This document shows positions 1-60,504 of a stretch of DNA of 64,000 nt, piece by piece. Both the position numbers and the translations under genes were made by a program. The stretch is from contig JAMSLZ010000022.1 in the NCBI GenBank assembly GCA_026027325.1, positions 178,071 to 242,070 on the forward strand, read 5' to 3'. Positions within the stretch are counted from its first letter, which is position 1. Every line of letters starts with the position of its first letter. Below the pieces are notes generated by a model. It saw only the letters and a list, made by a program, of their open reading frames with translations, was not told the DNA's origin and made no database searches. The DNA is from Actinomucor elegans (taxonomy: Eukaryota > Mucoromycota > Mucoromycetes > Mucorales > Mucoraceae).

Positions 1-1
1 C

Positions 2-36045: not shown

Positions 36046-36060
36046 GGGGATGTAGCTCAG
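36046..36060 (+). other. tRNA-Ala 5'-end fragment at the 3' junction of LINE copy 1
   Basis: GGGGATGTAGCTCAG equals the first 15 nt (acceptor strand, positions 8-9, D-stem and AG) of many eukaryotic tRNA-Ala genes. The remainder of a tRNA does not follow: the LINE 3' end begins immediately. The left flank (..aagtggaagacat) is unique to this junction, so this could be the original target tRNA gene, whose 3' half would lie right of the array outside the window. Confidence 0.65.
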
Positions 36061-36374
36061 TTTAAAGATTATATTTTATTAATAAGTAGTTATATGGGCA
36101 AACTCTATAGAGCATCTAGCCTAACTATATGAAAAAGTGTTTAATATAAACATAGAAAAAAGTATAAAAAACCCTGAGAACCACAAGGGAGAAAAAGGTT
36201 AAAGACAAGAGCGAGAACCAGTAGACTATTGCAGCTCTGAGTGATCCAAAAGGCAAGCCAACAGCTGGGAACTTTGATAATCACTTACCACCGTGGCTGC
36301 GCAGTTGAAAGACAAACAGGCTGGTTCATCAATAGAACAGAGAGAAAGAGAGGCTCAATAAACCAAGGAGAGGT

Positions 36375-39300
36375 TTATATAGTACGAGTAGCAGCAAACC
36401 AGGCATCACCAGGATCTGGATCTGGGACGATAGCAGCAAGAGGATGACACAGCGTGTCAATCACATAGAGAATCTCAAGGAGTGCAGACCAGAAAGGCGG
36501 TGGACCATTGGATGCTTTCAAGGGCAACAAGTTCAGGGCATGATCAATGCGATTGACATCTGGCGGAGCAGCAGGTAATTGGCACAGAAGGCGAGGATCA
36601 ATGCCACGGCAATTGAACACAAAGTGATCTCGAGAGAGCCGGCAACCAGTGAAACAAGGACACAATTCATCACGGTTAGCGAAACGGCCTAAGCGCCATC
36701 GAACAAGACGACTGCGAGCAGCGCGAGTCATAGGCAGGTACAGTATTGGATCAGGCTTTGAAGTAGAGGGCCGACAAGCACGCAAAAGAACCGATTTACC
36801 AGTGTGAGCAGCAGCAGCCATTTGCTTGTCAAAGAGGTCTTGCCAGTAGCCAGAGAACCAGGACTTGAGACGAGAGGCTGTAGGTACAGGATTGGGCAAT
36901 GCCATATGCATAGGATTGAGGTATAGGAGCTTGTTCAATCGAGTGTAGCCAAGACCAGAAGGAGAATTGTCTCGAGAAGAGTTCAGCAATGATATCAAGC
37001 AATCATCCGGAAGCCATTGCGACCGTAGGGCATACTTGGTAACCAGGACATTGTATCGATGCTTCATGGAAGGGATACAAGTGATGTGCTTCGTGACATT
37101 GAACCATCGGGAGCCAACAAACATACCAACTAACCGGTTCTGAAGGTTATCCAAAGCAGTAAAGTCAGCAGCAGAGAGCCTAGATATAGCAAGACCGTAC
37201 TCAAACTTGGGCCGAATGAAGGTAGTATATAACCGAGAACAGAGCAAGAGAGAGAAACCATTACGGTTGACACCAACCGAATTCAGTAGAGCCATGGTTT
37301 TGACTGCACCACCAGACCGTTTAGCCAGGATACCCGGACCATCAAGACCTTTCTTGTTGAATGGCATACCAAGATACGTGAACTCGTTCACTGCAGGCAG
37401 AGGAACATCATAGAGACTCAGTCTAAAGTTGGTAGACGTAGAGGAGGTCACAGAAGGAGCGTTCAGGACAGCACACTTGGTAGGGTTCCAACGATAGCCC
37501 AGTACTCTTGAATGATCAGCAGCTAAGTTCAACATATTTTGCACCTCATGTTTGGAGCCAAAGATTGCCACATCGTCGGCAAACAGAAGACAGTTAATGG
37601 CCACAGCCTCAGCAGATCCAGGAGGAGACACTACAGCAGTAGTATCTGAAGCTTCAGACCGAAGGAGCTCAGGCAAGGAGTTGATGTACAAAGAATACAA
37701 GTGAGGACTCAACACCGAACCTTGGAGTACACCAGTGGCAGGAGAGAAAGAGGAAGAGATGTGGTTGGCAATCAACACGGAGATGGATACATCATCAAAT
37801 AGATTGACCAGCAGACCAAGGAGAGGCCGAGGCAGAGATGAATTCTCAAGAGCATTCCAGATCACACATCGATCAACAGTGTCATAGGCAGCCTTAATAT
37901 CCAGAAAAGCAACAACAGGATAGTGGTGATGAACCAAGAAGTAGTTGTGCATCAGGTCGTGCAGACAGAGGGCTTGATCCAGAGGACTACGCATAGGACG
38001 GAAGCCACCTTGTGCGAGATCTAGAGAAGGCGAATGGTCATAGACGCTTTGTGCAATGGTAATCTCAAACAACTTACGCATCACCGAAGTCAAAGAAATT
38101 GGCCTGTAGTTGGCAGGATCAGAAGCATCACCTTTCTTGAAGATAGGAAAGACCTGGGCTTGACGCCATAGAACCGGTGTATAGCACCATTGGTAACAAA
38201 CCTGGAATAGCAAAGAGAGGACAGGAGCAAGTAAATCAGCAACAGCCTTGAGCATTTCAGCTTTTAGATGATCAGGACCAGGAGCTTTGCGATTCGGCAA
38301 CTGTTTGATATGCTCAACCAAGGTTTCCACCGAGAAAATCCAAGACACTTCTTCATCAGACACCAGGAAAGGCACTTCTAAACCAAAGTCAGGAGCAGCC
38401 AGGGGACGAGAAGCAGTTGACAAAAGAGAACCATCATACACTGTAGCCAGGTGAGTAGCCATAGAATCGACTGATGCTTGAGGGCCATCAGGATGAGCAT
38501 ACGTAGCAGAAGTTTCTTTCCGGCGTTTCAGCCTAGACATGGTGGCAGTGGCCTTGGCAAAGTCCTTTTGGAGTGACATGCAAAAGTTCTTCCAGGAGAG
38601 TCTTTTTGCAGCAGCAACAGCACGACGAAACGACTTGTGAGCTTGCAGATGGAGATGCCAGTAATAAGCCTTGTCAACACCAAATGAATGACGCCAACGG
38701 CAATAGAGGCGATCACGTTCTCGAGCAGCAGCTTCCAGATCAGCTGTCCAGTACTTCTTCCAATGACCAGGACGGGGAGCCTTAGACCCAATGGATTCAT
38801 CCATCGCCTGATAAAGACACTCATTCAGAGATGTATTGAGTGAATCTATAGGTGGACGACTATCCGGAGGAGAACCAACCAGACCAGCAAGAGTATCCTT
38901 CAAAGGAGCAACCAGACACCGAAACCGAGTATGGAACAGAGCCAAAGGCTCAGACTCAGCCAGCCGACTGAGGTTCCATGTCCTACGAGGAGCCAGCACC
39001 GAAGAGTCACCTACACCAGAAGAGCCACCAGAAACAGCAATGTACTTGAACCCCAACTGAAGCAGCCGATGATCAGAGCCCAAAGACAGATCGGATGCCA
39101 CAGAAAGAGAAGGAGACACCATACCAGAACCACCAATGTTGGTCAAGAACAAGTCAATGATACTGCTCGCCACAGCACCATTTCTGAAGGTACAGTATGT
39201 ATCAATACCATACGCCAAGGAAGCATTCAACACTGACAGATTGCGTTCTTCAATCCAAGGAAGCAGAGCTAGACCACGAGGATTTGTTGCAGAATCACCA

Positions 39301-39767
39301 GTAAGATCACCAAGGCGTGCATTGAAGTCACCGCAGATAATAGTATCAGTGTGAAGAGGCAGTGAGTTGAGAGAAGAGAGCACCAGATCACGAGAGAGAC
39401 TGGGTGGAAAGTAGACACAATGTACATTGACTTTGTCAACCTTGATCGACAGAGTATATGCATTGTAAGACGGAAGTTGAGAGACAGTAAAAGGACAGTG
39501 AGGAGAGATGAGAGCAGTGACACCACCTGAGCCACGTCCATTGGCATTAGTGACAGTTTGACCGTACAGATGATATTGAGACCAATCGGTAGGGATCAAC
39601 CCAGAGGTAAGCCAAGTTTCAGTAATCAGGAGGATATCACAAGAGAGAGCATGAGAGAGTACATCATGGATGGTAGTGACCCGAAGGCCATTGGCATTCC
39701 ACAATGCAAGAGAAAAGGAGCGGACGGGGGTATCAGAAGGAGTGAAAGGAGGGACTGAAGATGTCAT
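36375..39767 (-). CDS. LINE ORF2 (copy 1): endonuclease-reverse transcriptase
   Basis: The 1,130-aa protein begins with an AP-endonuclease-like domain (residues about 15-240): LALWNANG (N24), LLITETW (E50), ICGDFNARLGD (D147, N149) and GSDHRLL (D232, H233) supply the catalytic set that nicks target DNA. The reverse transcriptase (about 480-790) shows RPISLTSVMRKLFE, FLDIKAAYDTVDR, GVLQGSVLSPHLYSLYIN and the LLFADDVAIFG catalytic box near residue 730. Near residue 1035 a C-x-C-x3-C-x5-H-x4-C cluster (CPCFTGCRLSRDHFVFNC) is a zinc-knuckle-like C-terminal finger. This layout (APE, RT, Cys-His tail, no RNase H seen) is that of APE-type LINEs such as the L1/Tx1, R1 and Jockey groups. It performs target-primed reverse transcription. 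The start overlaps the ORF1 stop. Confidence 0.95.
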   Translation of the reverse strand: MTSSVPPFTPSDTPVRSFSLALWNANGLRVTTIHDVLSHALSCDILLITETWLTSGLIPTDWSQYHLYGQTVTNANGRGSGGVTALISPHCPFTVSQLPSYNAYTLSIKVDKVNVHCVYFPPSLSRDLVLSSLNSLPLHTDTIICGDFNARLGDLTGDSATNPRGLALLPWIEERNLSVLNASLAYGIDTYCTFRNGAVASSIIDLFLTNIGGSGMVSPSLSVASDLSLGSDHRLLQLGFKYIAVSGGSSGVGDSSVLAPRRTWNLSRLAESEPLALFHTRFRCLVAPLKDTLAGLVGSPPDSRPPIDSLNTSLNECLYQAMDESIGSKAPRPGHWKKYWTADLEAAARERDRLYCRWRHSFGVDKAYYWHLHLQAHKSFRRAVAAAKRLSWKNFCMSLQKDFAKATATMSRLKRRKETSATYAHPDGPQASVDSMATHLATVYDGSLLSTASRPLAAPDFGLEVPFLVSDEEVSWIFSVETLVEHIKQLPNRKAPGPDHLKAEMLKAVADLLAPVLSLLFQVCYQWCYTPVLWRQAQVFPIFKKGDASDPANYRPISLTSVMRKLFEITIAQSVYDHSPSLDLAQGGFRPMRSPLDQALCLHDLMHNYFLVHHHYPVVAFLDIKAAYDTVDRCVIWNALENSSLPRPLLGLLVNLFDDVSISVLIANHISSSFSPATGVLQGSVLSPHLYSLYINSLPELLRSEASDTTAVVSPPGSAEAVAINCLLFADDVAIFGSKHEVQNMLNLAADHSRVLGYRWNPTKCAVLNAPSVTSSTSTNFRLSLYDVPLPAVNEFTYLGMPFNKKGLDGPGILAKRSGGAVKTMALLNSVGVNRNGFSLLLCSRLYTTFIRPKFEYGLAISRLSAADFTALDNLQNRLVGMFVGSRWFNVTKHITCIPSMKHRYNVLVTKYALRSQWLPDDCLISLLNSSRDNSPSGLGYTRLNKLLYLNPMHMALPNPVPTASRLKSWFSGYWQDLFDKQMAAAAHTGKSVLLRACRPSTSKPDPILYLPMTRAARSRLVRWRLGRFANRDELCPCFTGCRLSRDHFVFNCRGIDPRLLCQLPAAPPDVNRIDHALNLLPLKASNGPPPFWSALLEILYVIDTLCHPLAAIVPDPDPGDAWFAATRTI

Positions 39768-40726
39768 TATTGTGACATTTCAGTATCGCTATCACCGGTA
39801 ACGTCTTCACCAGATGGCAAAGCACCAGAACTACGGAATGCAAAAGCAGCCTTCTTGGGATCCTTTTCGGCAAGACGAGAGCGAGCTTCCTTAATGGCTT
39901 GATCAAGATCACCATCATCAATCCATCCAAGTTCCACAAAGGAGCGACCAACAGAAGGGACCATCACTGGTCGAATGAACGCCAGAGTGCTGATACAGCG
40001 AGAGTGAACGAGGTTAGCCATCTCGTTTTCACGAGCATTGGCTGAGAGAGAAGCATACTTGGGGTCAGCAAGATGGGCTGGGTTTAAAGGATCAAAATCC
40101 TTAATGAACTCAGCTTCAGCCGTAGTCATAAGCTCGGTAAACTTTTCAACATACTGCGTATGTATCAGGACACCAAGGACACCAGTAGCAGGGAAACAGA
40201 CATCTAACACACGACCAGTGTCAACACCAGCGCGACGTAACCGAGAGCGGACTTCAGTACGATCAAGTTTGCGAGATCGACCAAGATAAACATAGGTAAA
40301 ACCCTGAGGACCCTGGGCCTCAAGGGTTTTGAAGGCGCGAGCAGCGGCTATACGTTTCTTTAGGGAAACGGCAGCAGGGCGAGAGGGGCGGCTGTCCTTT
40401 TTTACAGCGGCTGCAGCAATGGCAGCGAAAGACCGGGCACCATTTTTTTCCTGGGCGGGAGAAGCGACATCCTGCGGTGGACTACGAGCGGTGGCAGCAG
40501 AGAGTTGTGCTCGAAGTTGGTTATTTTCATTAACCAGAGCCTGGTTTTCGGTTTTGAGTCCAAGAATCTCATTTTTCAAGGTCTGGAGCTCTTCAAATAA
40601 TGTTTGATGTTGTTGCACTTGCTGAACAAGTGAAAACACCATTTGCTGTAGCTGCTGGAACTGCATTGGCTGTTGCATTTGGTCCATTGAGCCAGATGGC
40701 TCAGATGCATGTTGAACATTGGACAT
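39767..40726 (-). CDS. LINE ORF1 (copy 1): coiled-coil nucleic-acid-binding protein
   Basis: The 319-aa protein has a Gln-rich start (MDQMQQPMQFQQLQQMVFSL) followed by a leucine-heptad coiled coil (LFEELQTLKNEILGLKTENQ and on to about residue 75) suited to multimerisation. Then comes a basic Ala/Lys/Arg linker, and a C-terminal domain (about 140-265) with TYVYLGRSRKLDRTEVRSRL and GVLGVLIHTQYVEKF, which could be an RRM-like fold. No CCHC knuckle is present. The tail is acidic (GDSDTEMSQ). It is presumed to coat LINE RNA as ORF1p does in L1. The stop codon TAA shares its last base with the ORF2 ATG. Confidence 0.88.
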   Translation of the reverse strand: MSNVQHASEPSGSMDQMQQPMQFQQLQQMVFSLVQQVQQHQTLFEELQTLKNEILGLKTENQALVNENNQLRAQLSAATARSPPQDVASPAQEKNGARSFAAIAAAAVKKDSRPSRPAAVSLKKRIAAARAFKTLEAQGPQGFTYVYLGRSRKLDRTEVRSRLRRAGVDTGRVLDVCFPATGVLGVLIHTQYVEKFTELMTTAEAEFIKDFDPLNPAHLADPKYASLSANARENEMANLVHSRCISTLAFIRPVMVPSVGRSFVELGWIDDGDLDQAIKEARSRLAEKDPKKAAFAFRSSGALPSGEDVTGDSDTEMSQ

Positions 40727-40861
40727 TTCGAAATGGAGAAAAATTCAAGATGTCGAAAACTTGATGGAATGTTCTGAAAAAAAAACTGCAGATAGTACTT
40801 GGCGAGGCGAAGATGGATGTGCAATTTTTATAGATGGATGTATTGTAGTTGTTGAGATATT

Positions 40862-40896
40862 CACTGCAACTAATACCTACTTTTACGGCCGTAATA
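40862..40896 (+). repeat. Left terminal inverted repeat of CACTA-2
   Basis: Begins CACTGCAACTAATACC and ends in TTACGGCCGTAATA; preceded by the ATT duplication. Related GGCCGTAA motifs continue to about 41155 as subterminal repeats. Confidence 0.9.
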
Positions 40897-42392
40897 TATT
40901 GGTATTATTATGTAATATTACCGTACTTTTACCAAAATATTCCGGCCGTAACAGTTCAACTATTACCGCGGTATGTGTTCGCCTGTTACCATCCTTTTAC
41001 GGCCGGACAAGTTCAACTAGTACTGTTGGTAAAAGTATGGTAAAAGTTCGTCTGTTCCATTGGTAAAAGGCCGTAAAAGTTCAACTATTTCCATGAAAAT
41101 GACCGTAAAACAGTCCTCCTTTTACCGTCTTTTTACATATATTACGGTCCTTTTACATTAAATTGAACCAATAATAATTGATATTTTATAATTATACACA
41201 TTTTACATCTTTTACTATAATTTTGGTTTATACACATTTTTATTGAATAAAAATATTGTATATTCATTGCTAAATAATAATCCACCAGAAAGAGTACCAG
41301 ATATAATAGCCATAAATAACTAACTTCAGCAAACCAGTATTGTCGTAGTAAAACGCGCCATTTTTTAGAGAAGCAATCAGAGTAAAGAAAGCACAACCGA
41401 AAAGGCATTATATTAAGAAACGATCCAAAAGAAAAGCCACTTCAACCAAGAGGATAATTTAATTAGCAAAATCTAAACATCAAAAAGAGAGGTGAATAAC
41501 GTGTTTATAATTCCAGTCAGAAGTTAAACATACCAAGTATTGTTGCGTAGGGGCATTCAGCAGAATAGTACTAAAACAAATGAAAATGGATGTAAGTAAA
41601 ACAAGCTTTTGAGCGGATAGAAGATTAAGTGCTTACCATATGTTCAAGTATCAAAACGGCCTAAAAATGAGTGGTAAATGAAAGAAATCAGCACAGGTTA
41701 ATTAAACGTGAACGAAATTCATACATACCATAAAGATTATGACCAAAATAATTCGAGTTAACATAGCAGCTGGAAGCAGCAACTCAATCAAACCAATCTA
41801 ACAGCTAAATGGAAGAATATATAAGAACAAAGTTGAAGAAGAAAGCTTTAATACATACAAAATATAGCAAGTGCATTTGAAGACGGAATCACCATTTGGA
41901 ATATATCGAGCATATTAATACCAATCAGATGATATGTTAAGCTAAGATTAACGAAGAATCTAAAAAACCGATCAGTTTATGAAGTAATTACAACTTTTTC
42001 TCTTACCATTAAAATAAAAAAAAAAAAGCTCATGTAAAAAATAATGAGCTGTGAGTTTGCTAATGAGAGAAAAGAGGATTAAGTATGCTTCAAGCTATGA
42101 TTTAATAGGAATTTTTACCTTGATGGGAATGACTGATTAAAGCTATTTGTACATATATTTGAATTAAAAAAAAAGTAAGGATTACAATGAAAAGAAAACA
42201 CGAGAAGAGCGAAAAAATTTTATTAAAATAAAAGCCTCAAAGATGACGTATCAAAAAATAGTAACTATTAAGTAGAGATAGACTCACCAGTAATTGGATT
42301 AATAACATGCATAATTCAGGCACAGCACAAAAGTATAATAAAAGCTCTTTAAGGCATTCCTTTTTTAAATCACTATTAAAAAACATTTTAGC
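40897..42392. other. Non-coding left arm of CACTA-2
   Basis: About 1.5 kb. The first 260 bp hold repeated ttacGGCCGTAA and agttcaacta motifs in both orientations (near 40952, 40998, 41068 and 41100), probable binding sites for transposase or accessory protein. The rest (41160-42390) is AT-rich without a supported gene and should include the accessory gene promoter. Confidence 0.6.
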
Positions 42393-43784
42393 ATGTCTCA
42401 TTACAACCAGCAATCAACCAGCAACAGCAATCGCGTAGGCGCTCCTATTATCCCGCCAAGCAACGAGTTAATGTCAACTCCTATGACAGAAACCGTTGTC
42501 ATAGCAAGAGAAGAGTACGAAACTCTTCTGAGCACCGTCCGCCAGCTCACCAACACTGTTGAGGGGCTATCCCGCCAAGTTGCTCGCTTGGAGCAGGATA
42601 CAGCTGCCCACGAAAGATCGTTGGCGCTGTACGATTACGAGGAAGGCGGAAGCCTCGAATCCCAACCTGCGTTCCAGAGCGTACGCACGGGTGGCCCCCG
42701 TACTGGCAGTCGCGGTGAAGCAGCTTCTTCTTCAACCGTAGGAGATGAGGAAGAAGACTCAGCTGAAAACCGTCGTCTCTTTCGCGTAAAGTTATATGTT
42801 GAAAAAAAAAGCAGGTTAATAAGTTTTTAAATAACATTTTAATGATACTAGGATTTGCTTACCTCTTACTACGGAACTTTGTCGCAAAAGTATGATTTTA
42901 AGGTATCATTATCCTATCCTCCGAACAAAGATGTTCGAACAAAAATGAGAACCTATGGTGAGAACAATCGCCAAACACACCATATTTCAGCCAGGGCAAT
43001 GAAACAGATTATCACTGACCGCTTTTGGTATATGTCGAGGTTGCATAAAAAAGCTAAGGATCTGGGAGAAGACGATGAAGTTGTTATTGATTCCGTTAGC
43101 GAAGCCTATGCCAAAAGAAACAGGTGCAATTCCCGTACTCAATTGGTAAAGTAGCAGTGATAGTAATGTTGAGGTTATTCATCTTTTGTTGGTATAGAAA
43201 TTGGGCCATAGAGTAGATATGTACTCTCAGAACAAAGAGCATTTCGAAAAAGAATATGGTAAACAGTTCCCAGTCTTTTTGGTTGCTGGAATGATGTCTG
43301 AAGAGGAAAGCGATGTAGACATGGAAGGCCAACAAGTGCTGATTCGTAAACGACCTCAGTACAGAAGCGCAAAAGTAAGTATATGCGTGCTTTTCCTTAT
43401 TTTCATTGACTCCTTAGTAACCGGTGATACCTCTTTTTCCATCGCATTCATTAGTTGAATAATGCTTTCGATAAGTTAGATGACCTCTGGATTAATCCTC
43501 GCTGCAAAAAAACGAAGAGAAAGAGAGGTAATCATCTTCCTCGTGTTACCATGGAGCAGGATATTCCATTCAACGATCAAGCGATGAAGTACGCCTCCTT
43601 TCCTGCTTGGGGATGGGATCCTGAGGCTCGTATGACTTTTGAGTCTTCTGTTTTTCGTAGCATATCTAGTGGCTCACCAACTGGTGCTTCTCGAGGTGGA
43701 TCTCCTGGCCCATCAACTGCTGCTTCTCGTAACCAGTTTGATATTTCTTCTTTTCTTCCCTCTTTCACTGAATCACAACAGTAA
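42393..43784 (+). CDS. CACTA-2 accessory protein, coiled-coil (397 aa)
   Basis: Four exons (42393-42785, 42852-43145, 43198-43374, 43455-43784), all joined in phase 0, encode 397 aa. Residues about 38-75 (REEYETLLSTVRQLTNTVEG, then LSRQVARLEQD) form a coiled coil. An acidic Ser-rich linker follows. The central part (about 135-290) is mixed and basic, with ISARAMKQIITDRFWYMSRL. The last exon has a Lys/Arg-rich stretch (KKTKRKRGNHLPR) like a nuclear localisation signal, then PSFPAWGWDPEAR-type sequence and a Ser/Gly-rich tail. I do not recognise a family. Location inside the element and basic, multimerising character suggest a TnpA-like DNA-binding helper. The gene is convergent with the transposase, unlike in CACTA-1. 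Confidence 0.65.
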
Positions 43785-43856
43785 TAAAGATTAGCAATAT
43801 AGCATAAAAAAATAGGAAAAAGGATATAATAATATATATATAATTGATACAAAAGC

Positions 43857-50694: not shown

Positions 50695-53600
50695 TTATAT
50701 AGTACGAGTAGCAGCAAACCAGGCATCACCAGGATCTGGATCTGGGACGATAGCAGCAAGAGGATGACACAGCGTGTCAATCACATAGAGAATCTCAAGG
50801 AGTGCAGACCAGAAAGGCGGTGGACCATTGGATGCTTTCAAGGGCAACAAGTTCAGGGCATGATCAATGCGATTGACATCTGGCGGAGCAGCAGGTAATT
50901 GGCACAGAAGGCGAGGATCAATGCCACGGCAATTGAACACAAAGTGATCTCGAGAGAGCCGGCAACCAGTGAAACAAGGACACAATTCATCACGGTTAGC
51001 GAAACGGCCTAAGCGCCATCGAACAAGACGACTGCGAGCAGCGCGAGTCATAGGCAGGTACAGTATTGGATCAGGCTTTGAAGTAGAGGGCCGACAAGCA
51101 CGCAAAAGAACCGATTTACCAGTGTGAGCAGCAGCAGCCATTTGCTTGTCAAAGAGGTCTTGCCAGTAGCCAGAGAACCAGGACTTGAGACGAGAGGCTG
51201 TAGGTACAGGATTGGGCAATGCCATATGCATAGGATTGAGGTATAGGAGCTTGTTCAATCGAGTGTAGCCAAGACCAGAAGGAGAATTGTCTCGAGAAGA
51301 GTTCAGCAATGATATCAAGCAATCATCCGGAAGCCATTGCGACCGTAGGGCATACTTGGTAACCAGGACATTGTATCGATGCTTCATGGAAGGGATACAA
51401 GTGATGTGCTTCGTGACATTGAACCATCGGGAGCCAACAAACATACCAACTAACCGGTTCTGAAGGTTATCCAAAGCAGTAAAGTCAGCAGCAGAGAGCC
51501 TAGATATAGCAAGACCGTACTCAAACTTGGGCCGAATGAAGGTAGTATATAACCGAGAACAGAGCAAGAGAGAGAAACCATTACGGTTGACACCAACCGA
51601 ATTCAGTAGAGCCATGGTTTTGACTGCACCACCAGACCGTTTAGCCAGGATACCCGGACCATCAAGACCTTTCTTGTTGAATGGCATACCAAGATACGTG
51701 AACTCGTTCACTGCAGGCAGAGGAACATCATAGAGACTCAGTCTAAAGTTGGTAGACGTAGAGGAGGTCACAGAAGGAGCGTTCAGGACAGCACACTTGG
51801 TAGGGTTCCAACGATAGCCCAGTACTCTTGAATGATCAGCAGCTAAGTTCAACATATTTTGCACCTCATGTTTGGAGCCAAAGATTGCCACATCGTCGGC
51901 AAACAGAAGACAGTTAATGGCCACAGCCTCAGCAGATCCAGGAGGAGACACTACAGCAGTAGTATCTGAAGCTTCAGACCGAAGGAGCTCAGGCAAGGAG
52001 TTGATGTACAAAGAATACAAGTGAGGACTCAACACCGAACCTTGGAGTACACCAGTGGCAGGAGAGAAAGAGGAAGAGATGTGGTTGGCAATCAACACGG
52101 AGATGGATACATCATCAAATAGATTGACCAGCAGACCAAGGAGAGGCCGAGGCAGAGATGAATTCTCAAGAGCATTCCAGATCACACATCGATCAACAGT
52201 GTCATAGGCAGCCTTAATATCCAGAAAAGCAACAACAGGATAGTGGTGATGAACCAAGAAGTAGTTGTGCATCAGGTCGTGCAGACAGAGGGCTTGATCC
52301 AGAGGACTACGCATAGGACGGAAGCCACCTTGTGCGAGATCTAGAGAAGGCGAATGGTCATAGACGCTTTGTGCAATGGTAATCTCAAACAACTTACGCA
52401 TCACCGAAGTCAAAGAAATTGGCCTGTAGTTGGCAGGATCAGAAGCATCACCTTTCTTGAAGATAGGAAAGACCTGGGCTTGACGCCATAGAACCGGTGT
52501 ATAGCACCATTGGTAACAAACCTGGAATAGCAAAGAGAGGACAGGAGCAAGTAAATCAGCAACAGCCTTGAGCATTTCAGCTTTTAGATGATCAGGACCA
52601 GGAGCTTTGCGATTCGGCAACTGTTTGATATGCTCAACCAAGGTTTCCACCGAGAAAATCCAAGACACTTCTTCATCAGACACCAGGAAAGGCACTTCTA
52701 AACCAAAGTCAGGAGCAGCCAGGGGACGAGAAGCAGTTGACAAAAGAGAACCATCATACACTGTAGCCAGGTGAGTAGCCATAGAATCGACTGATGCTTG
52801 AGGGCCATCAGGATGAGCATACGTAGCAGAAGTTTCTTTCCGGCGTTTCAGCCTAGACATGGTGGCAGTGGCCTTGGCAAAGTCCTTTTGGAGTGACATG
52901 CAAAAGTTCTTCCAGGAGAGTCTTTTTGCAGCAGCAACAGCACGACGAAACGACTTGTGAGCTTGCAGATGGAGATGCCAGTAATAAGCCTTGTCAACAC
53001 CAAATGAATGACGCCAACGGCAATAGAGGCGATCACGTTCTCGAGCAGCAGCTTCCAGATCAGCTGTCCAGTACTTCTTCCAATGACCAGGACGGGGAGC
53101 CTTAGACCCAATGGATTCATCCATCGCCTGATAAAGACACTCATTCAGAGATGTATTGAGTGAATCTATAGGTGGACGACTATCCGGAGGAGAACCAACC
53201 AGACCAGCAAGAGTATCCTTCAAAGGAGCAACCAGACACCGAAACCGAGTATGGAACAGAGCCAAAGGCTCAGACTCAGCCAGCCGACTGAGGTTCCATG
53301 TCCTACGAGGAGCCAGCACCGAAGAGTCACCTACACCAGAAGAGCCACCAGAAACAGCAATGTACTTGAACCCCAACTGAAGCAGCCGATGATCAGAGCC
53401 CAAAGACAGATCGGATGCCACAGAAAGAGAAGGAGACACCATACCAGAACCACCAATGTTGGTCAAGAACAAGTCAATGATACTGCTCGCCACAGCACCA
53501 TTTCTGAAGGTACAGTATGTATCAATACCATACGCCAAGGAAGCATTCAACACTGACAGATTGCGTTCTTCAATCCAAGGAAGCAGAGCTAGACCACGAG

Positions 53601-54087
53601 GATTTGTTGCAGAATCACCAGTAAGATCACCAAGGCGTGTATTGAAGTCACCGCAGATAATAGTATCAGTGTGAAGAGGCAGTGAGTTGAGAGAAGAGAG
53701 CACCAGATCACGAGAGAGACTGGGTGGAAAGTAGACACAATGTACATTGACTTTGTCAACCTTGATCGACAGAGTATATGCATTGTAAGACGGAAGTTGA
53801 GAGACAGTAAAAGGACAGTGAGGAGAGATGAGAGCAGTGACACCACCTGAGCCACGTCCATTGGCATTAGTGACAGTTTGACCGTACAGATGATATTGAG
53901 ACCAATCGGTAGGGATCAACCCAGAGGTAAGCCAAGTTTCAGTAATCAGGAGGATATCACAAGAGAGAGCATGAGAGAGTACATCATGGATGGTAGTGAC
54001 CCGAAGGCCATTGGCATTCCACAATGCAAGAGAAAAGGAGCGGACGGGGGTATCAGAAGGAGTGAAAGGAGGGACTGAAGATGTCAT
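50695..54087 (-). CDS. LINE ORF2 (copy 2): endonuclease-reverse transcriptase
   Basis: 1,130 aa, same domains as copy 1. The only residue difference I see is Ala150 to Thr, so the motif reads CGDFNTRLGD. Catalytic D147, N149, D232 and H233 and the FADD box are kept. Residue 150 directly follows catalytic Asn149, so a modest effect on nicking is possible. Confidence 0.95.
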   Translation of the reverse strand: MTSSVPPFTPSDTPVRSFSLALWNANGLRVTTIHDVLSHALSCDILLITETWLTSGLIPTDWSQYHLYGQTVTNANGRGSGGVTALISPHCPFTVSQLPSYNAYTLSIKVDKVNVHCVYFPPSLSRDLVLSSLNSLPLHTDTIICGDFNTRLGDLTGDSATNPRGLALLPWIEERNLSVLNASLAYGIDTYCTFRNGAVASSIIDLFLTNIGGSGMVSPSLSVASDLSLGSDHRLLQLGFKYIAVSGGSSGVGDSSVLAPRRTWNLSRLAESEPLALFHTRFRCLVAPLKDTLAGLVGSPPDSRPPIDSLNTSLNECLYQAMDESIGSKAPRPGHWKKYWTADLEAAARERDRLYCRWRHSFGVDKAYYWHLHLQAHKSFRRAVAAAKRLSWKNFCMSLQKDFAKATATMSRLKRRKETSATYAHPDGPQASVDSMATHLATVYDGSLLSTASRPLAAPDFGLEVPFLVSDEEVSWIFSVETLVEHIKQLPNRKAPGPDHLKAEMLKAVADLLAPVLSLLFQVCYQWCYTPVLWRQAQVFPIFKKGDASDPANYRPISLTSVMRKLFEITIAQSVYDHSPSLDLAQGGFRPMRSPLDQALCLHDLMHNYFLVHHHYPVVAFLDIKAAYDTVDRCVIWNALENSSLPRPLLGLLVNLFDDVSISVLIANHISSSFSPATGVLQGSVLSPHLYSLYINSLPELLRSEASDTTAVVSPPGSAEAVAINCLLFADDVAIFGSKHEVQNMLNLAADHSRVLGYRWNPTKCAVLNAPSVTSSTSTNFRLSLYDVPLPAVNEFTYLGMPFNKKGLDGPGILAKRSGGAVKTMALLNSVGVNRNGFSLLLCSRLYTTFIRPKFEYGLAISRLSAADFTALDNLQNRLVGMFVGSRWFNVTKHITCIPSMKHRYNVLVTKYALRSQWLPDDCLISLLNSSRDNSPSGLGYTRLNKLLYLNPMHMALPNPVPTASRLKSWFSGYWQDLFDKQMAAAAHTGKSVLLRACRPSTSKPDPILYLPMTRAARSRLVRWRLGRFANRDELCPCFTGCRLSRDHFVFNCRGIDPRLLCQLPAAPPDVNRIDHALNLLPLKASNGPPPFWSALLEILYVIDTLCHPLAAIVPDPDPGDAWFAATRTI

Positions 54088-55046
54088 TATTGTGACATTT
54101 CAGTATCGCTATCACCGGTAACGTCTTCACCAGATGGCAAAGCACCAGAACTACGGAATGCAAAAGCAGCCTTCTTGGGATCCTTTTCGGCAAGACGAGA
54201 GCGAGCTTCCTTAATGGCTTGATCAAGATCACCATCATCAATCCATCCAAGTTCCACAAAGGAGCGACCAACAGAAGGGACCATCACTGGTCGAATGAAC
54301 GCCAGAGTGCTGATACAGCGAGAGTGAACGAGGTTAGCCATCTCGTTTTCACGAGCATTGGCTGAGAGAGAAGCATACTTGGGGTCAGCAAGATGGGCTG
54401 GGTTTAAAGGATCAAAATCCTTAATGAACTCAGCTTCAGCCGTAGTCATAAGCTCGGTAAACTTTTCAACATACTGCGTATGTATCAGGACACCAAGGAC
54501 ACCAGTAGCAGGGAAACAGACATCTAACACACGACCAGTGTCAACACCAGCGCGACGTAACCGAGAGCGGACTTCAGTACGATCAAGTTTGCGAGATCGA
54601 CCAAGATAAACATAGGTAAAACCCTGAGGACCCTGGGCCTCAAGGGTTTTGAAGGCGCGAGCAGCGGCTATACGTTTCTTTAGGGAAACGGCAGCAGGGC
54701 GAGAGGGGCGGCTGTCCTTTTTTACAGCGGCTGCAGCAATGGCAGCGAAAGACCGGGCACCATTTTTTTCCTGGGCGGGAGAAGCGACATCCTGCGGTGG
54801 ACTACGAGCGGTGGCAGCAGAGAGTTGTGCTCGAAGTTGGTTATTTTCATTAACCAGAGCCTGGTTTTCGGTTTTGAGTCCAAGAATCTCATTTTTCAAG
54901 GTCTGGAGCTCTTCAAATAATGTTTGATGTTGTTGCACTTGCTGAACAAGTGAAAACACCATTTGCTGTAGCTGCTGGAACTGCATTGGCTGTTGCATTT
55001 GGTCCATTGAGCCAGATGGCTCAGATGCATGTTGAACATTGGACAT
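54087..55046 (-). CDS. LINE ORF1 (copy 2): coiled-coil nucleic-acid-binding protein
   Basis: 319 aa, identical by eye to ORF1 of copy 1, with the same TAATG overlap to ORF2 (54085-54089). Confidence 0.88.
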   Translation of the reverse strand: MSNVQHASEPSGSMDQMQQPMQFQQLQQMVFSLVQQVQQHQTLFEELQTLKNEILGLKTENQALVNENNQLRAQLSAATARSPPQDVASPAQEKNGARSFAAIAAAAVKKDSRPSRPAAVSLKKRIAAARAFKTLEAQGPQGFTYVYLGRSRKLDRTEVRSRLRRAGVDTGRVLDVCFPATGVLGVLIHTQYVEKFTELMTTAEAEFIKDFDPLNPAHLADPKYASLSANARENEMANLVHSRCISTLAFIRPVMVPSVGRSFVELGWIDDGDLDQAIKEARSRLAEKDPKKAAFAFRSSGALPSGEDVTGDSDTEMSQ

Positions 55047-55235
55047 TTCGAAATGGAGAAAAATTCAAGATGTCGAAAACTTGATGGAATGTTCTGAAAA
55101 AAAAACTGCAGATAGTACTTGGCGAGGCGAAGATGGATGTGCAATTTTTATAGATGGATGTATTGTAGTTGTTGAGATATTCGGCTTTGAAAAAGTGGAT
55201 TTTTGAAAAAAGTTTTCAAAAGCGAAAGAAGAGTG

Positions 55236-55250
55236 GGGGATGTAGCTCAG
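55236..55250 (+). other. tRNA-Ala-like 15-mer at the LINE copy 2/copy 3 junction
   Basis: GGGGATGTAGCTCAG preceded by one extra G (55235), the only junction with five G. The extra base accounts for the 4,870-bp period between copies 2 and 3. Confidence 0.7.
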
Positions 55251-55564
55251 TTTAAAGATTATATTTTATTAATAAGTAGTTATATGGGCAAACTCTATAG
55301 AGCATCTAGCCTAACTATATGAAAAAGTGTTTAATATAAACATAGAAAAAAGTATAAAAAACCCTGAGAACCACAAGGGAGAAAAAGGTTAAAGACAAGA
55401 GCGAGAACCAGTAGACTATTGCAGCTCTGAGTGATCCAAAAGGCAAGTCAACAGCTGGGAACTTTGATAATCACTTACCACCGTGGCTGCGCAGTTGAAA
55501 GACAAACAGGCTGGTTCATCAATAGAACAGAGAGAAAGAGAGGCTCAATAAACCAAGGAGAGGT

Positions 55565-58500
55565 TTATATAGTACGAGTAGCAGCAAACCAGGCATCACC
55601 AGGATCTGGATCTGGGACGATAGCAGCAAGAGGATGACACAGCGTGTCAATCACATAGAGAATCTCAAGGAGTGCAGACCAGAAAGGCGGTGGACCATTG
55701 GATGCTTTCAAGGGCAACAAGTTCAGGGCATGATCAATGCGATTGACATCTGGCGGAGCAGCAGGTAATTGGCACAGAAGGCGAGGATCAATGCCACGGC
55801 AATTGAACACAAAGTGATCTCGAGAGAGCCGGCAACCAGTGAAACAAGGACACAATTCATCACGGTTAGCGAAACGGCCTAAGCGCCATCGAACAAGACG
55901 ACTGCGAGCAGCGCGAGTCATAGGCAGGTACAGTATTGGATCAGGCTTTGAAGTAGAGGGCCGACAAGCACGCAAAAGAACCGATTTACCAGTGTGAGCA
56001 GCAGCAGCCATTTGCTTGTCAAAGAGGTCTTGCCAGTAGCCAGAGAACCAGGACTTGAGACGAGAGGCTGTAGGTACAGGATTGGGCAATGCCATATGCA
56101 TAGGATTGAGGTATAGGAGCTTGTTCAATCGAGTGTAGCCAAGACCAGAAGGAGAATTGTCTCGAGAAGAGTTCAGCAATGATATCAAGCAATCATCCGG
56201 AAGCCATTGCGACCGTAGGGCATACTTGGTAACCAGGACATTGTATCGATGCTTCATGGAAGGGATACAAGTGATGTGCTTCGTGACATTGAACCATCGG
56301 GAGCCAACAAACATACCAACTAACCGGTTCTGAAGGTTATCCAAAGCAGTAAAGTCAGCAGCAGAGAGCCTAGATATAGCAAGACCGTACTCAAACTTGG
56401 GCCGAATGAAGGTAGTATATAACCGAGAACAGAGCAAGAGAGAGAAACCATTACGGTTGACACCAACCGAATTCAGTAGAGCCATGGTTTTGACTGCACC
56501 ACCAGACCGTTTAGCCAGGATACCCGGACCATCAAGACCTTTCTTGTTGAATGGCATACCAAGATACGTGAACTCGTTCACTGCAGGCAGAGGAACATCA
56601 TAGAGACTCAGTCTAAAGTTGGTAGACGTAGAGGAGGTCACAGAAGGAGCGTTCAGGACAGCACACTTGGTAGGGTTCCAACGATAGCCCAGTACTCTTG
56701 AATGATCAGCAGCTAAGTTCAACATATTTTGCACCTCATGTTTGGAGCCAAAGATTGCCACATCGTCGGCAAACAGAAGACAGTTAATGGCCACAGCCTC
56801 AGCAGATCCAGGAGGAGACACTACAGCAGTAGTATCTGAAGCTTCAGACCGAAGGAGCTCAGGCAAGGAGTTGATGTACAAAGAATACAAGTGAGGACTC
56901 AACACCGAACCTTGGAGTACACCAGTGGCAGGAGAGAAAGAGGAAGAGATGTGGTTGGCAATCAACACGGAGATGGATACATCATCAAATAGATTGACCA
57001 GCAGACCAAGGAGAGGCCGAGGCAGAGATGAATTCTCAAGAGCATTCCAGATCACACATCGATCAACAGTGTCATAGGCAGCCTTAATATCCAGAAAAGC
57101 AACAACAGGATAGTGGTGATGAACCAAGAAGTAGTTGTGCATCAGGTCGTGCAGACAGAGGGCTTGATCCAGAGGACTACGCATAGGACGGAAGCCACCT
57201 TGTGCGAGATCTAGAGAAGGCGAATGGTCATAGACGCTTTGTGCAATGGTAATCTCAAACAACTTACGCATCACCGAAGTCAAAGAAATTGGCCTGTAGT
57301 TGGCAGGATCAGAAGCATCACCTTTCTTGAAGATAGGAAAGACCTGGGCTTGACGCCATAGAACCGGTGTATAGCACCATTGGTAACAAACCTGGAATAG
57401 CAAAGAGAGGACAGGAGCAAGTAAATCAGCAACAGCCTTGAGCATTTCAGCTTTTAGATGATCAGGACCAGGAGCTTTGCGATTCGGCAACTGTTTGATA
57501 TGCTCAACCAAGGTTTCCACCGAGAAAATCCAAGACACTTCTTCATCAGACACCAGGAAAGGCACTTCTAAACCAAAGTCAGGAGCAGCCAGGGGACGAG
57601 AAGCAGTTGACAAAAGAGAACCATCATACACTGTAGCCAGGTGAGTAGCCATAGAATCGACTGATGCTTGAGGGCCATCAGGATGAGCATACGTAGCAGA
57701 AGTTTCTTTCCGGCGTTTCAGCCTAGACATGGTGGCAGTGGCCTTGGCAAAGTCCTTTTGGAGTGACATGCAAAAGTTCTTCCAGGAGAGTCTTTTTGCA
57801 GCAGCAACAGCACGACGAAACGACTTGTGAGCTTGCAGATGGAGATGCCAGTAATAAGCCTTGTCAACACCAAATGAATGACGCCAACGGCAATAGAGGC
57901 GATCACGTTCTCGAGCAGCAGCTTCCAGATCAGCTGTCCAGTACTTCTTCCAATGACCAGGACGGGGAGCCTTAGACCCAATGGATTCATCCATCGCCTG
58001 ATAAAGACACTCATTCAGAGATGTATTGAGTGAATCTATAGGTGGACGACTATCCGGAGGAGAACCAACCAGACCAGCAAGAGTATCCTTCAAAGGAGCA
58101 ACCAGACACCGAAACCGAGTATGGAACAGAGCCAAAGGCTCAGACTCAGCCAGCCGACTGAGGTTCCATGTCCTACGAGGAGCCAGCACCGAAGAGTCAC
58201 CTACACCAGAAGAGCCACCAGAAACAGCAATGTACTTGAACCCCAACTGAAGCAGCCGATGATCAGAGCCCAAAGACAGATCGGATGCCACAGAAAGAGA
58301 AGGAGACACCATACCAGAACCACCAATGTTGGTCAAGAACAAGTCAATGATACTGCTCGCCACAGCACCATTTCTGAAGGTACAGTATGTATCAATACCA
58401 TACGCCAAGGAAGCATTCAACACTGACAGATTGCGTTCTTCAATCCAAGGAAGCAGAGCTAGACCACGAGGATTTGTTGCAGAATCACCAGTAAGATCAC

Positions 58501-58957
58501 CAAGGCGTGCATTGAAGTCACCGCAGATAATAGTATCAGTGTGAAGAGGCAGTGAGTTGAGAGAAGAGAGCACCAGATCACGAGAGAGACTGGGTGGAAA
58601 GTAGACACAATGTACATTGACTTTGTCAACCTTGATCGACAGAGTATATGCATTGTAAGACGGAAGTTGAGAGACAGTAAAAGGACAGTGAGGAGAGATG
58701 AGAGCAGTGACACCACCTGAGCCACGTCCATTGGCATTAGTGACAGTTTGACCGTACAGATGATATTGAGACCAATCGGTAGGGATCAACCCAGAGGTAA
58801 GCCAAGTTTCAGTAATCAGGAGGATATCACAAGAGAGAGCATGAGAGAGTACATCATGGATGGTAGTGACCCGAAGGCCATTGGCATTCCACAATGCAAG
58901 AGAAAAGGAGCGGACGGGGGTATCAGAAGGAGTGAAAGGAGGGACTGAAGATGTCAT
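55565..58957 (-). CDS. LINE ORF2 (copy 3): endonuclease-reverse transcriptase
   Basis: 1,130 aa, identical to the copy 1 protein by eye, with all catalytic positions present. Together with an intact ORF1 and complete UTRs, this makes copy 3 a full source-element candidate. Confidence 0.95.
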   Translation of the reverse strand: MTSSVPPFTPSDTPVRSFSLALWNANGLRVTTIHDVLSHALSCDILLITETWLTSGLIPTDWSQYHLYGQTVTNANGRGSGGVTALISPHCPFTVSQLPSYNAYTLSIKVDKVNVHCVYFPPSLSRDLVLSSLNSLPLHTDTIICGDFNARLGDLTGDSATNPRGLALLPWIEERNLSVLNASLAYGIDTYCTFRNGAVASSIIDLFLTNIGGSGMVSPSLSVASDLSLGSDHRLLQLGFKYIAVSGGSSGVGDSSVLAPRRTWNLSRLAESEPLALFHTRFRCLVAPLKDTLAGLVGSPPDSRPPIDSLNTSLNECLYQAMDESIGSKAPRPGHWKKYWTADLEAAARERDRLYCRWRHSFGVDKAYYWHLHLQAHKSFRRAVAAAKRLSWKNFCMSLQKDFAKATATMSRLKRRKETSATYAHPDGPQASVDSMATHLATVYDGSLLSTASRPLAAPDFGLEVPFLVSDEEVSWIFSVETLVEHIKQLPNRKAPGPDHLKAEMLKAVADLLAPVLSLLFQVCYQWCYTPVLWRQAQVFPIFKKGDASDPANYRPISLTSVMRKLFEITIAQSVYDHSPSLDLAQGGFRPMRSPLDQALCLHDLMHNYFLVHHHYPVVAFLDIKAAYDTVDRCVIWNALENSSLPRPLLGLLVNLFDDVSISVLIANHISSSFSPATGVLQGSVLSPHLYSLYINSLPELLRSEASDTTAVVSPPGSAEAVAINCLLFADDVAIFGSKHEVQNMLNLAADHSRVLGYRWNPTKCAVLNAPSVTSSTSTNFRLSLYDVPLPAVNEFTYLGMPFNKKGLDGPGILAKRSGGAVKTMALLNSVGVNRNGFSLLLCSRLYTTFIRPKFEYGLAISRLSAADFTALDNLQNRLVGMFVGSRWFNVTKHITCIPSMKHRYNVLVTKYALRSQWLPDDCLISLLNSSRDNSPSGLGYTRLNKLLYLNPMHMALPNPVPTASRLKSWFSGYWQDLFDKQMAAAAHTGKSVLLRACRPSTSKPDPILYLPMTRAARSRLVRWRLGRFANRDELCPCFTGCRLSRDHFVFNCRGIDPRLLCQLPAAPPDVNRIDHALNLLPLKASNGPPPFWSALLEILYVIDTLCHPLAAIVPDPDPGDAWFAATRTI

Positions 58958-59916
58958 TATTGTGACATTTCAGTATCGCTATCACCGGTAACGTCTTCAC
59001 CAGATGGCAAAGCACCAGAACTACGGAATGCAAAAGCAGCCTTCTTGGGATCCTTTTCGGCAAGACGAGAGCGAGCTTCCTTAATGGCTTGATCAAGATC
59101 ACCATCATCAATCCATCCAAGTTCCACAAAGGAGCGACCAACAGAAGGGACCATCACTGGTCGAATGAACGCCAGAGTGCTGATACAGCGAGAGTGAACG
59201 AGGTTAGCCATCTCGTTTTCACGAGCATTGGCTGAGAGAGAAGCATACTTGGGGTCAGCAAGATGGGCTGGGTTTAAAGGATCAAAATCCTTAATGAACT
59301 CAGCTTCAGCCGTAGTCATAAGCTCGGTAAACTTTTCAACATACTGCGTATGTATCAGGACACCAAGGACACCAGTAGCAGGGAAACAGACATCTAACAC
59401 ACGACCAGTGTCAACACCAGCGCGACGTAACCGAGAGCGGACTTCAGTACGATCAAGTTTGCGAGATCGACCAAGATAAACATAGGTAAAACCCTGAGGA
59501 CCCTGGGCCTCAAGGGTTTTGAAGGCGCGAGCAGCGGCTATACGTTTCTTTAGGGAAACGGCAGCAGGGCGAGAGGGGCGGCTGTCCTTTTTTACAGCGG
59601 CTGCAGCAATGGCAGCGAAAGACCGGGCACCATTTTTTTCCTGGGCGGGAGAAGCGACATCCTGCGGTGGACTACGAGCGGTGGCAGCAGAGAGTTGTGC
59701 TCGAAGTTGGTTATTTTCATTAACCAGAGCCTGGTTTTCGGTTTTGAGTCCAAGAATCTCATTTTTCAAGGTCTGGAGCTCTTCAAATAATGTTTGATGT
59801 TGTTGCACTTGCTGAACAAGTGAAAACACCATTTGCTGTAGCTGCTGGAACTGCATTGGCTGTTGCATTTGGTCCATTGAGCCAGATGGCTCAGATGCAT
59901 GTTGAACATTGGACAT
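58957..59916 (-). CDS. LINE ORF1 (copy 3): coiled-coil nucleic-acid-binding protein
   Basis: 319 aa, identical by eye to ORF1 of copies 1 and 2; stop and ORF2 start overlap in TAATG (58955-58959). Confidence 0.88.
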   Translation of the reverse strand: MSNVQHASEPSGSMDQMQQPMQFQQLQQMVFSLVQQVQQHQTLFEELQTLKNEILGLKTENQALVNENNQLRAQLSAATARSPPQDVASPAQEKNGARSFAAIAAAAVKKDSRPSRPAAVSLKKRIAAARAFKTLEAQGPQGFTYVYLGRSRKLDRTEVRSRLRRAGVDTGRVLDVCFPATGVLGVLIHTQYVEKFTELMTTAEAEFIKDFDPLNPAHLADPKYASLSANARENEMANLVHSRCISTLAFIRPVMVPSVGRSFVELGWIDDGDLDQAIKEARSRLAEKDPKKAAFAFRSSGALPSGEDVTGDSDTEMSQ

Positions 59917-60104
59917 TTCGAAATGGAGAAAAATTCAAGATGTCGAAAACTTGATGGAATGTTCTGAAAAAAAAACTGCAGATAGTACTTGGCGAGGCGA
60001 AGATGGATGTGCAATTTTTATAGATGGATGTATTGTAGTTGTTGAGATATTCGGCTTTGAAAAAGTGGATTTTTGAAAAAAGTTTTCAAAAGCGAAAGAA
60101 GAGT

Positions 60105-60119
60105 GGGGATGTAGCTCAG
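60105..60119 (+). other. tRNA-Ala-like 15-mer at the LINE copy 3/copy 4 junction
   Basis: GGGGATGTAGCTCAG, as at the other junctions. Confidence 0.7.
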
Positions 60120-60504
60120 TTTAAAGATTATATTTTATTAATAAGTAGTTATATGGGCAAACTCTATAGAGCATCTAGCCTAACTATATGAAAAAGTGTT
60201 TAATATAAACATAGAAAAAAGTATAAAAAACCCTGAGAACCACAAGGGAGAAAAAGGTTAAAGACAAGAGCGAGAACCAGTAGACTATTGCAGCTCTGAG
60301 TGATCCAAAAGGCAAGCCAACAGCTGGGAACTTTGATAATCACTTACCACCGTGGCTGCGCAGTTGAAAGACAAACAGGCTGGTTCATCAATAGAACAGA
60401 GAGAAAGAGAGGCTCAATAAACCAAGGAGAGGTTTATATAGTACGAGTAGCAGCAAACCAGGCATCACCAGGATCTGGATCTGGGACGATAGCAGCAAGA
60501 GGAT
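60120..60504 (-). mobile_element. LINE copy 4, 3' end only, cut by a Gypsy insertion
   Basis: Contains the whole 3' UTR and the last about 24 codons of ORF2 (ending ..DAWFAATRTI), identical by eye to the other copies, and then stops at ..gcaagaggat where the LTR begins. The rest of copy 4 probably lies beyond the Gypsy element outside the window. Confidence 0.85.

What the first reader, a model, noticed from the sequence alone, without database searches (positions are those of the whole stretch)
36046..60504. Tandem LINE array with a tRNA-Ala 5' fragment at every unit junction
Four LINE units lie head-to-tail (period 4,869-4,870 bp after removing CACTA-2). At each junction (36046, 50366, 55236, 60105) the sense 3' end abuts the same 15-mer, GGGGATGTAGCTCAG, which equals the start of many tRNA-Ala genes. 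The left flank of the first 15-mer is unique genomic DNA. The simplest model is a LINE that targets the D-arm region of a tRNA-Ala gene, duplicates about 15 bp, and then either reinserts at the regenerated target or amplifies by unequal exchange. tRNA-targeting LINEs are known elsewhere (Dictyostelium TRE elements near tRNA genes, some animal site-specific LINEs inside RNA genes), but an array punctuated by a tRNA fragment in a fungus would be new to me.
Basis: partly seen in the sequence, partly recalled or inferred. Interest (0 to 1): 0.85.

Follow-up and report, generated by a model that had tools for sequence, protein, structure and literature searches.

The report
LINE arrays anchored at tRNA-alanine genes
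In this Mucor-like fungus a selfish DNA element appears to insert again and again at the very start of one kind of tRNA gene, copying the first 14 letters of that gene each time so that the gene stays whole, and so building long tandem arrays beside it.

Summary
GGGGATGTAGCTCA is the start of the host's tRNA-Ala(AGC) gene. Of 11 such genes found, all identical over 73 nt, 8 have a LINE-type element against base 1 (0-1 bp), antisense; 3 are empty. All 73 exact 15-mers lie at LINE-type 3' ends. None of 73 other tRNA or tRNA-like loci lies within 8 kb of one. At one array's outer end the tag borders the native tRNA-Ala upstream flank, a join found elsewhere only at an empty tRNA-Ala gene. Best model: an APE-type, L1-like LINE nicks tRNA-Ala after base 14, inserts by target-primed reverse transcription, duplicates 14 bp, restores the gene, and repeats. 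An ORF1-only relative (B) shares tail and arrays. Corrections: the LINE reads on the minus strand; the left flank of 36046 is a diverged B-like element, not unique DNA; base 15 is not tRNA; unit 4 is truncated; the contig ends at 64000, so this array's own tRNA gene is not seen. New variant of a known kind (tRNA-targeting LINEs; target-punctuated MoTeR arrays).

The parts
35628..36045 (-). 5' part of a diverged relative of element B, abutting the outer 15-mer in register (the supposed unique flank)
   Evidence: blastn to B: 74.6% over 335 positions from B base 95 at 35951, so B base 1 falls at the junction; tblastn to the B ORF1 50-51%
36046..36060 (+). 15-mer GGGGATGTAGCTCAG at the 3' end of unit 1 (first 14 nt = tRNA-Ala bases 1-14)
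36046..40862 (-). LINE unit 1, main part (unit bases 53-4869)
   Evidence: 99.98% to unit 3
36378..39779 (-). ORF2 of unit 1, 1134 aa open frame (stop to stop); APE endonuclease + reverse transcriptase by Pfam on the unit 3 copy, which is identical in protein
39770..40744 (-). ORF1 of unit 1, 325 aa open frame (stop to stop)
40863..50309 (.). CACTA-like DNA transposon inserted in unit 1 (not part of the LINE)
   Evidence: terminal inverted repeats 40861-40907 / 50264-50310; Transposase_21 ORF 43857-46208
50310..50365 (-). 5' end of LINE unit 1 (unit bases 1-56)
   Evidence: 100%
50366..55234 (-). LINE unit 2, full length, 4,869 bp; its 3' end carries the 15-mer 50366-50380
55236..60104 (-). 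LINE unit 3, full length, 4,869 bp; its 3' end carries the 15-mer 55236-55250; ORF2 55568-58969, ORF1 58960-59934
60105..60504 (-). LINE unit 4, last 400 nt only; its 3' end carries the 15-mer 60105-60119
   Evidence: 99.75%; protein similarity to 60529
64000..64000 (.). end of the assembled contig (C15 has 242,070 bases = window end); the tRNA side of the array is not assembled

Best explanation
A target-specific, APE-type, L1-like LINE of a Mucor-like fungus inserts into tRNA-Ala(AGC) genes. Proposed cycle: ORF2p nicks the tRNA coding strand after base 14 (GGGGATGTAGCTCA^AATGG); the freed 3' end primes reverse transcription of the LINE RNA from its conserved 3' end (AAUCUUUAAAC, no poly(A)); the second cut falls at the 5' edge of the gene; repair duplicates bases 1-14. 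The LINE then lies antisense, just upstream of a complete tRNA gene, which can serve as target again. Each round adds one LINE plus one 14-bp tRNA tag and pushes older copies outward, giving head-to-tail arrays with the tRNA gene at the growing end. A smaller ORF1-only element (B) and 5'-truncated copies enter the same arrays, presumably with the same enzyme. Shown: location, orientation, junctions, complete tRNA genes, native flank at one outer end. Inferred: nick sites, duplication rather than an element-encoded tag, growth order, B's dependence on the LINE.
For: 8 of 11 identical tRNA-Ala(AGC) genes have an element 0-1 bp before base 1, antisense in all 8: 7 begin with an element's 5' end (4 A-type LINE, 3 B) and 1 with a truncated A; ARAGORN calls all 11 as tRNA-Ala(AGC). 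0 of 73 other tRNA or tRNA-like loci within 8 kb of a tag against 8 of 11, Fisher p 3.8e-9. All 73 exact 15-mers were read: 72 directly follow the 3' end AATCTTTAAA, the other is a second copy 4 nt behind a tail. Behind the 73: 43 A-type 5' ends, 13 B 5' ends (within 30 nt of the 5' end), 11 truncated copies, 1 diverged B-like, 5 without match, of which 1 is the native tRNA flank. Native flank + tag occurs twice in the genome, at the outer end of the C27 array and at the empty gene C27:1133232; its last 20 nt agree at 18, the best of 200,000 random stretches at 15. Constant 3' and varied 5' joins fit target-primed reverse transcription. ORF1 and ORF2 are open in all three full units of the window; APE and RVT_1 domains by Pfam on one of them.
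Against: All copies found sit at this target, so duplication of the target cannot be told from an element-encoded tag by sequence alone. Native flank was seen at only 1 array; the window's own array shows none, and one other outer flank (C22:2141822) is unexplained. By my grouping, 5 of 13 clusters have no tRNA-Ala gene within 8 kb on the expected side: C15 and C1 (low end, 15.5 kb from the contig start) face contig ends, but C7, C21 and C22 (2.13 Mb) do not; single short stretches read at C21 and C22 held neither tag nor A/B match. Four junctions share one odd form and two share truncation point 4468, which points to local duplication as well. The tail lacks the poly(A) usual in L1. Searches for relatives' DNA gave nothing, so this rests on one genome. 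The tRNA control list is incomplete (63 of 2,052 candidates scored), and counts from this genome are lower bounds by the tool's own note.
Confidence: 0.87

Rival explanations
1. The 14-15 nt tag is the element's own 3' end, which equals the tRNA start by capture or chance; the LINE inserts blunt at the 5' edge of the tRNA gene (or next to itself) without a duplication.
For: The tag is the same in all 73 copies and in two elements whose ORF1 proteins are only 33.6% alike over 143 aa; base 15 (G) is not from the tRNA.
Against: Exact identity to bases 1-14 of the very gene that bounds the arrays is then a coincidence or a captured target. Three 5' junctions carry extra partial target sequence (GCTACATCCCC twice, ATCCCC once), as target-derived joins do.
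Confidence: 0.2
2. Pol III guided insertion, as in Ty3, Tj1 or TRE5-A: the element follows the transcription complex, not the sequence.
For: Insertion at the 5' edge of tRNA genes, as Tj1 (within 12 bp upstream of tRNA genes in 13 of 17 inserts, abstract of PMC4600332).
Against: 0 of 73 other tRNA or tRNA-like loci within 8 kb of a tag against 8 of 11 Ala-AGC; the tag lies inside the gene. The control list is incomplete: one search scored 63 of 2,052 candidates.
Confidence: 0.07
3. The arrays grew mainly by unequal exchange or replication slippage from one insertion.
For: Near-identical units in the window (1-2 differences); four C22 junctions of one odd form; two C21 units of 401-402 bp cut at the same base 4468.
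Against: Copies on other contigs are as close to the window unit (C8 99.95% over 4,118 bp, C1 99.98% over 3,924 bp), so identity marks recent spread. Arrays mix A, B and truncated copies with many different 5' junctions. It does not explain 8 separate tRNA-Ala loci.
Confidence: 0.12
4. tRNA-derived SINE or a Pol III promoter (A box) inside the LINE.
For: The 15-mer includes A-box-like sequence (recalled motif).
Against: Only 14 nt match, at the sense 3' end and reading antisense to the LINE; no tRNA or Rfam hit in the window.
Confidence: 0.01

Closest known systems
Grem-LINE1 elements of Mucor circinelloides / lusitanicus (PMC7377519, PMC7763443, PMC11943222: passages seen)
   Same: L1-like LINEs of Mucoromycotina reported around centromeres; named relatives of ORF2 here come from Mucor, Rhizopus, Cokeromyces, Phycomyces, Umbelopsis and others.
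   Different: In the passages seen nothing ties them to tRNA genes (the word tRNA occurs 0 times in PMC7377519 and PMC11943222; in PMC7763443 6 times, in the passages shown about tRNA fragments). Identity with a named Grem-LINE1 was not tested; no Grem-LINE1 sequence was at hand. One copy given there spans 5.9 kb, the unit here 4.87 kb.
MoTeR1/MoTeR2 of Magnaporthe oryzae (PMC7367193, passages seen)
   Same: Fungal retrotransposons in head-to-tail arrays, separated by short pieces of the target; an element and its likely defective partner share the arrays.
   Different: Target is the telomere repeat; here it is a tRNA gene that is restored at each insertion.
NeSL-1_TV (tRNA-Pro), LIN15_SM (tRNA-Arg), LIN25_SM (tRNA-Glu) (PMC4640811, passages seen)
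   Same: Non-LTR retrotransposons specific for one kind of tRNA gene.
   Different: The paper treats them among families related to NeSL, a clade it lists as having a restriction-like endonuclease; this one has an APE-type endonuclease. No arrays are described in the passages seen.
TRE5-A of Dictyostelium (PMC5391098, abstract)
   Same: Non-LTR element that lands upstream of tRNA genes.
   Different: It lands about 47 bp upstream, and a tagged copy hit 384 of 405 tRNA genes; here one gene kind, with the junction at base 1.
Tj1 of Schizosaccharomyces japonicus (PMC4600332, abstract)
   Same: Insertion next to tRNA genes, given as the cause of clustering in centromeres.
   Different: LTR retrotransposon, not specific to one tRNA.
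Dada-tA DNA transposons (PMC8869645, passages seen)
   Same: Insert in tRNA-Ala genes.
   Different: DNA transposons, described from fish; other site in the gene (around the anticodon loop) and other mechanism.

Membership tests
APE-type, L1-like non-LTR retrotransposon | ORF2 with apurinic-type endonuclease and reverse transcriptase | tested here: met
   PF03372 1.6e-9, PF14529 6.8e-11, PF00078 1.3e-26; best solved relative LINE-1 ORF2 protein 8sxt 1.2e-19, named R2 proteins 2.6e-11 and weaker
APE-type, L1-like non-LTR retrotransposon | fixed 3' ends, variable 5' truncation | tested here: met
   40 of 40 scored 3' ends abut the tag (61 first-look candidates); 11 truncated copies at 10 different points among 73 flanks, one of them resting on a 30-nt match
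APE-type, L1-like non-LTR retrotransposon | poly(A) or A-rich tail | tested here: not met
   units end AATCTTTAAAC + tag; some target-specific LINEs lack poly(A) (recalled), so the wider class is kept; placement in the L1 clade by a tree was not done
Grem-LINE1 | close sequence identity to named Grem-LINE1 copies | not testable with these tools
   no Grem-LINE1 sequence held; host unnamed
Grem-LINE1 | pericentric location | not tested
   C8 shows two arrays back to back, but no kinetochore data or centromere motif was used
tRNA-gene-specific non-LTR retrotransposon | copies sit in or at one kind of tRNA gene | tested here: met
   8 of 11 Ala-AGC genes, 0 of 73 other tRNA or tRNA-like loci; 8 of 13 clusters end at such a gene
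tRNA-gene-specific non-LTR retrotransposon | target-site duplication from that gene | tested here: inconclusive
   14-nt repeat on both sides at one array with native flank; an element-encoded tag is not excluded
Pol III guided element (Ty3/Tj1/TRE5 manner) | insertion next to many kinds of Pol III genes | tested here: not met
   tRNA list incomplete
MoTeR-like target-punctuated array | head-to-tail LINEs separated by short target pieces, with a second, defective element | tested here: met
   it works like a MoTeR array; kinship with MoTeR was not tested

The most novel reading that the evidence does not exclude
tRNA-Ala genes are the landing pads that built the LINE-rich regions around Mucor centromeres: each array grows at its outer edge, where the tRNA gene always sits; the newest LINE lies there in Pol III-open chromatin, head to head with an active tRNA gene, while older copies become silenced pericentric DNA. 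The same tRNA genes may bound that chromatin, as a tRNA-Ala gene does at fission yeast cen1 (abstract of PMC2040200). C8 shows the pattern: two arrays back to back between tRNA-Ala genes at 318940 (-) and 389640 (+).
Probability: 0.35. Interest if true: 0.9.

Novelty: new variant of a known kind. Interest (0 to 1): 0.74.

Why it matters
Why transposons gather at centromeres was stated to be unknown in PMC4600332 (abstract); here it can be tested by mapping tRNA-Ala genes against Mucor centromeres. It also adds an APE-type LINE with a short, exact tRNA target to the small set of site-specific LINEs, which are of interest for targeted DNA writing.

Tried and rejected
Single stretches of 351-401 bp at the expected tRNA side of the C21 and C22 (2.13 Mb) clusters and near the C8 centre held no tag (3 edits allowed) and no match to A or B; what they are was not searched. 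tRNA and Rfam scans of the window: nothing. The 2019 centromere paper (Curr Biol, doi 10.1016/j.cub.2019.09.024) is not held, so I do not know whether it mentions tRNA genes. Literature searches; none of the listings or passages I saw describes a tRNA-Ala-targeting LINE in fungi, but the library lacks most subscription papers.

Rejected: the unique left flank (it is B-like); a tRNA-derived SINE; growth by unequal exchange alone. No age gradient is claimed: in C27 the outermost copy is 100% and a nearer one 96% like the window unit in the last 300 nt, so subfamily and age are mixed, and no test of order by age was run.
Full report
What is in the window. Three full-length LINE units and one truncated unit lie head to tail at 36046-60504, with GGGGATGTAGCTCAG on the + strand at 36046, 50366, 55236 and 60105. 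The LINE is coded on the minus strand: frames of 325 aa (ORF1) and 1,134 aa (ORF2) are open in all three full units; Pfam finds an APE endonuclease and a reverse transcriptase in ORF2 of unit 3. In sense direction each full unit starts ACTCTTCTTTCGCT and ends AATCTTTAAA-CTGAGCTACATCCCC, without poly(A). Unit 1 is split by a 9.4-kb CACTA-like transposon. Units 2 and 3 differ at 2 of 4,869 positions, units 1 and 3 at 1 of 4,817. The supposed unique flank left of 36046 is the 5' part of a diverged second element, in register with base 1 at the junction. The contig ends at window base 64000.

The tag in the genome. The 15-mer occurs 73 times in 36.5 Mb and its reversed control never. I read the surroundings of all 73. 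72 directly follow AATCTTTAAA; the other is a second copy of the tag 4 nt behind a tail (C14). One more tail has a single mismatch (C1:35254). A search with the last 300 nt of the LINE without the tag scored 40 long matches (of 61 first-look candidates) and one 31-nt piece; all 40 end exactly at a tag, by my comparison of the coordinates. The tails belong to two elements: the LINE (A, with subfamilies down to about 80% identity) and B, about 1.96 kb without the tag. B has a 492-aa frame (stop to stop) related to ORF1 (33.6% over 143 aa, 9e-25); no other frame of B exceeds 242 aa. A and B share the last 75 nt at 80% and the last 25 nt exactly.

The target. A pattern for tRNA-Ala found 11 tRNA-Ala(AGC) genes, all identical over 73 nt and starting GGGGATGTAGCTCAAATGG; ARAGORN agrees for all 11. 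A search with their first 27 nt and up to 3 mismatches listed only these 11. In 8 of 11 an element stands directly against base 1, antisense to the gene (5' end of A-type in 4, of B in 3, truncated A in 1; one has a single extra base); in 3 the flank is other DNA ending ATAA, ATAA or ATAT. Of 73 other tRNA or tRNA-like loci (63, which scored 63 of 2,052 candidates, and 10) none lies within 8 kb of a tag and 2 lie within 20 kb, against 8 of 11 Ala genes within 8 kb (Fisher p 3.8e-9).

The outer ends. If LINEs enter the gene and the first 14 bases are duplicated, the outermost tag must border the old tRNA upstream flank. At C27:910100 it does: the flank ends TTGGTCTTACTACTATAT, and a search for TCTTACTACTATATGGGGATGTAGCTCA with up to 3 mismatches listed only this place and the empty tRNA-Ala gene C27:1133232, both exact. 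Over the last 20 nt the two flanks agree at 18; the best of 200,000 random stretches from 264 kb of this genome agreed at 15 with any of the three empty flanks. The occupied tRNA gene of this array is at C27:891568, some 18.5 kb away. The other four unmatched flanks: three start with CTCTTCTT shortly behind the tag, as A and B 5' ends do, and may be 5' ends of further families (inference); one (C22:2141822) is unexplained. The window's own outer flank is a B-like element, so its native flank is not seen.

How the arrays grow. Behind the 73 tags stand 43 A-type 5' ends and 13 B 5' ends (starting within 30 nt of the 5' end; one rests on a 30-nt match), 11 truncated copies cut at 10 different points (one rests on a 30-nt match), 1 diverged B-like 5' end and 5 unmatched stretches. 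Constant 3' joins and varied 5' joins are the mark of target-primed reverse transcription (established knowledge of LINEs, recalled). Copies on C8 and C1 are as close to the window unit as its neighbours are (99.95% over 4,118 bp, 99.98% over 3,924 bp), so the likeness of neighbours does not need local duplication. Local duplication seems to occur all the same: four C22 junctions share CCCCCTCTTC and two C21 units are cut at the same base 4468. Grouping by place gives 13 clusters; 8 end at a tRNA-Ala gene on the 5' side. Of the other 5, C15 and C1 (low end) face a contig end; C7, C21 and C22 (2.13 Mb) are unexplained.

Mechanism and its limits. The best model is given above. Extra partial target at three 5' junctions favours duplication. 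Specificity for one tRNA kind speaks for recognition of sequence and against Pol III guidance, within the incomplete control.

What is known. tRNA-specific LINEs exist (NeSL-1_TV, LIN15_SM, LIN25_SM; PMC4640811 passages); TRE5-A and Tj1 land near tRNA genes (abstracts); MoTeRs form arrays separated by pieces of their telomeric target, with a likely defective partner (PMC7367193 passages). Mucor has pericentric LINE1-like elements called Grem-LINE1 (PMC7377519, PMC7763443 passages). Of the 119 relatives of ORF2 listed (7,992 candidates scored), those with an organism name and more than 35% identity are from genera that I know as Mucoromycotina; a spider protein is among the weaker ones. Whether these LINEs are Grem-LINE1 and whether the arrays are pericentric were not tested. 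So: a new variant of a known kind, with a testable link to centromere structure.

Noticed in passing
window 47265-49768: A 2,504-bp element with 222-bp identical direct terminal repeats (LTR-like) that holds a 427-aa frame with a DDE_Tnp_4 domain and a C-terminal chromodomain. Near-identical copies, whole or in parts at locus edges, lie in LINE arrays on C1 and C8, and a lone 222-bp repeat in L058. Terminal direct repeats around a DDE transposase gene are odd.
   Followed up: partly
L027:2181-4152; further B 5' ends on C1, C8, C14, C21, C22, C27: Element B: about 1.96-kb ORF1-only relative that shares the LINE's 3' end and target, like a half-LINE (recalled: HAL1); likely mobilised by the LINE.
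   Followed up: partly
window 61194-63412: Ty3/gypsy-type integrase with chromodomain (61194-62852) and a further retrotransposon-like frame (62825-63412) on the minus strand, next to the truncated unit 4; an 89-bp stretch at 60568-60656 recurs at 33926-34014 with 85% identity.
   Followed up: no
C8:39389 and C22:725161: Two B copies on different contigs carry the same extra 11 nt of target (GCTACATCCCC) before their 5' end; this may be a 5' extension copied through RNA, or shared ancestry.
   Followed up: no
C8:318940-389712: Two LINE arrays back to back (3' ends facing each other) between divergent tRNA-Ala genes; the 8.5 kb between the innermost tags (356747-365239) may hold a centromere core.
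   Followed up: partly
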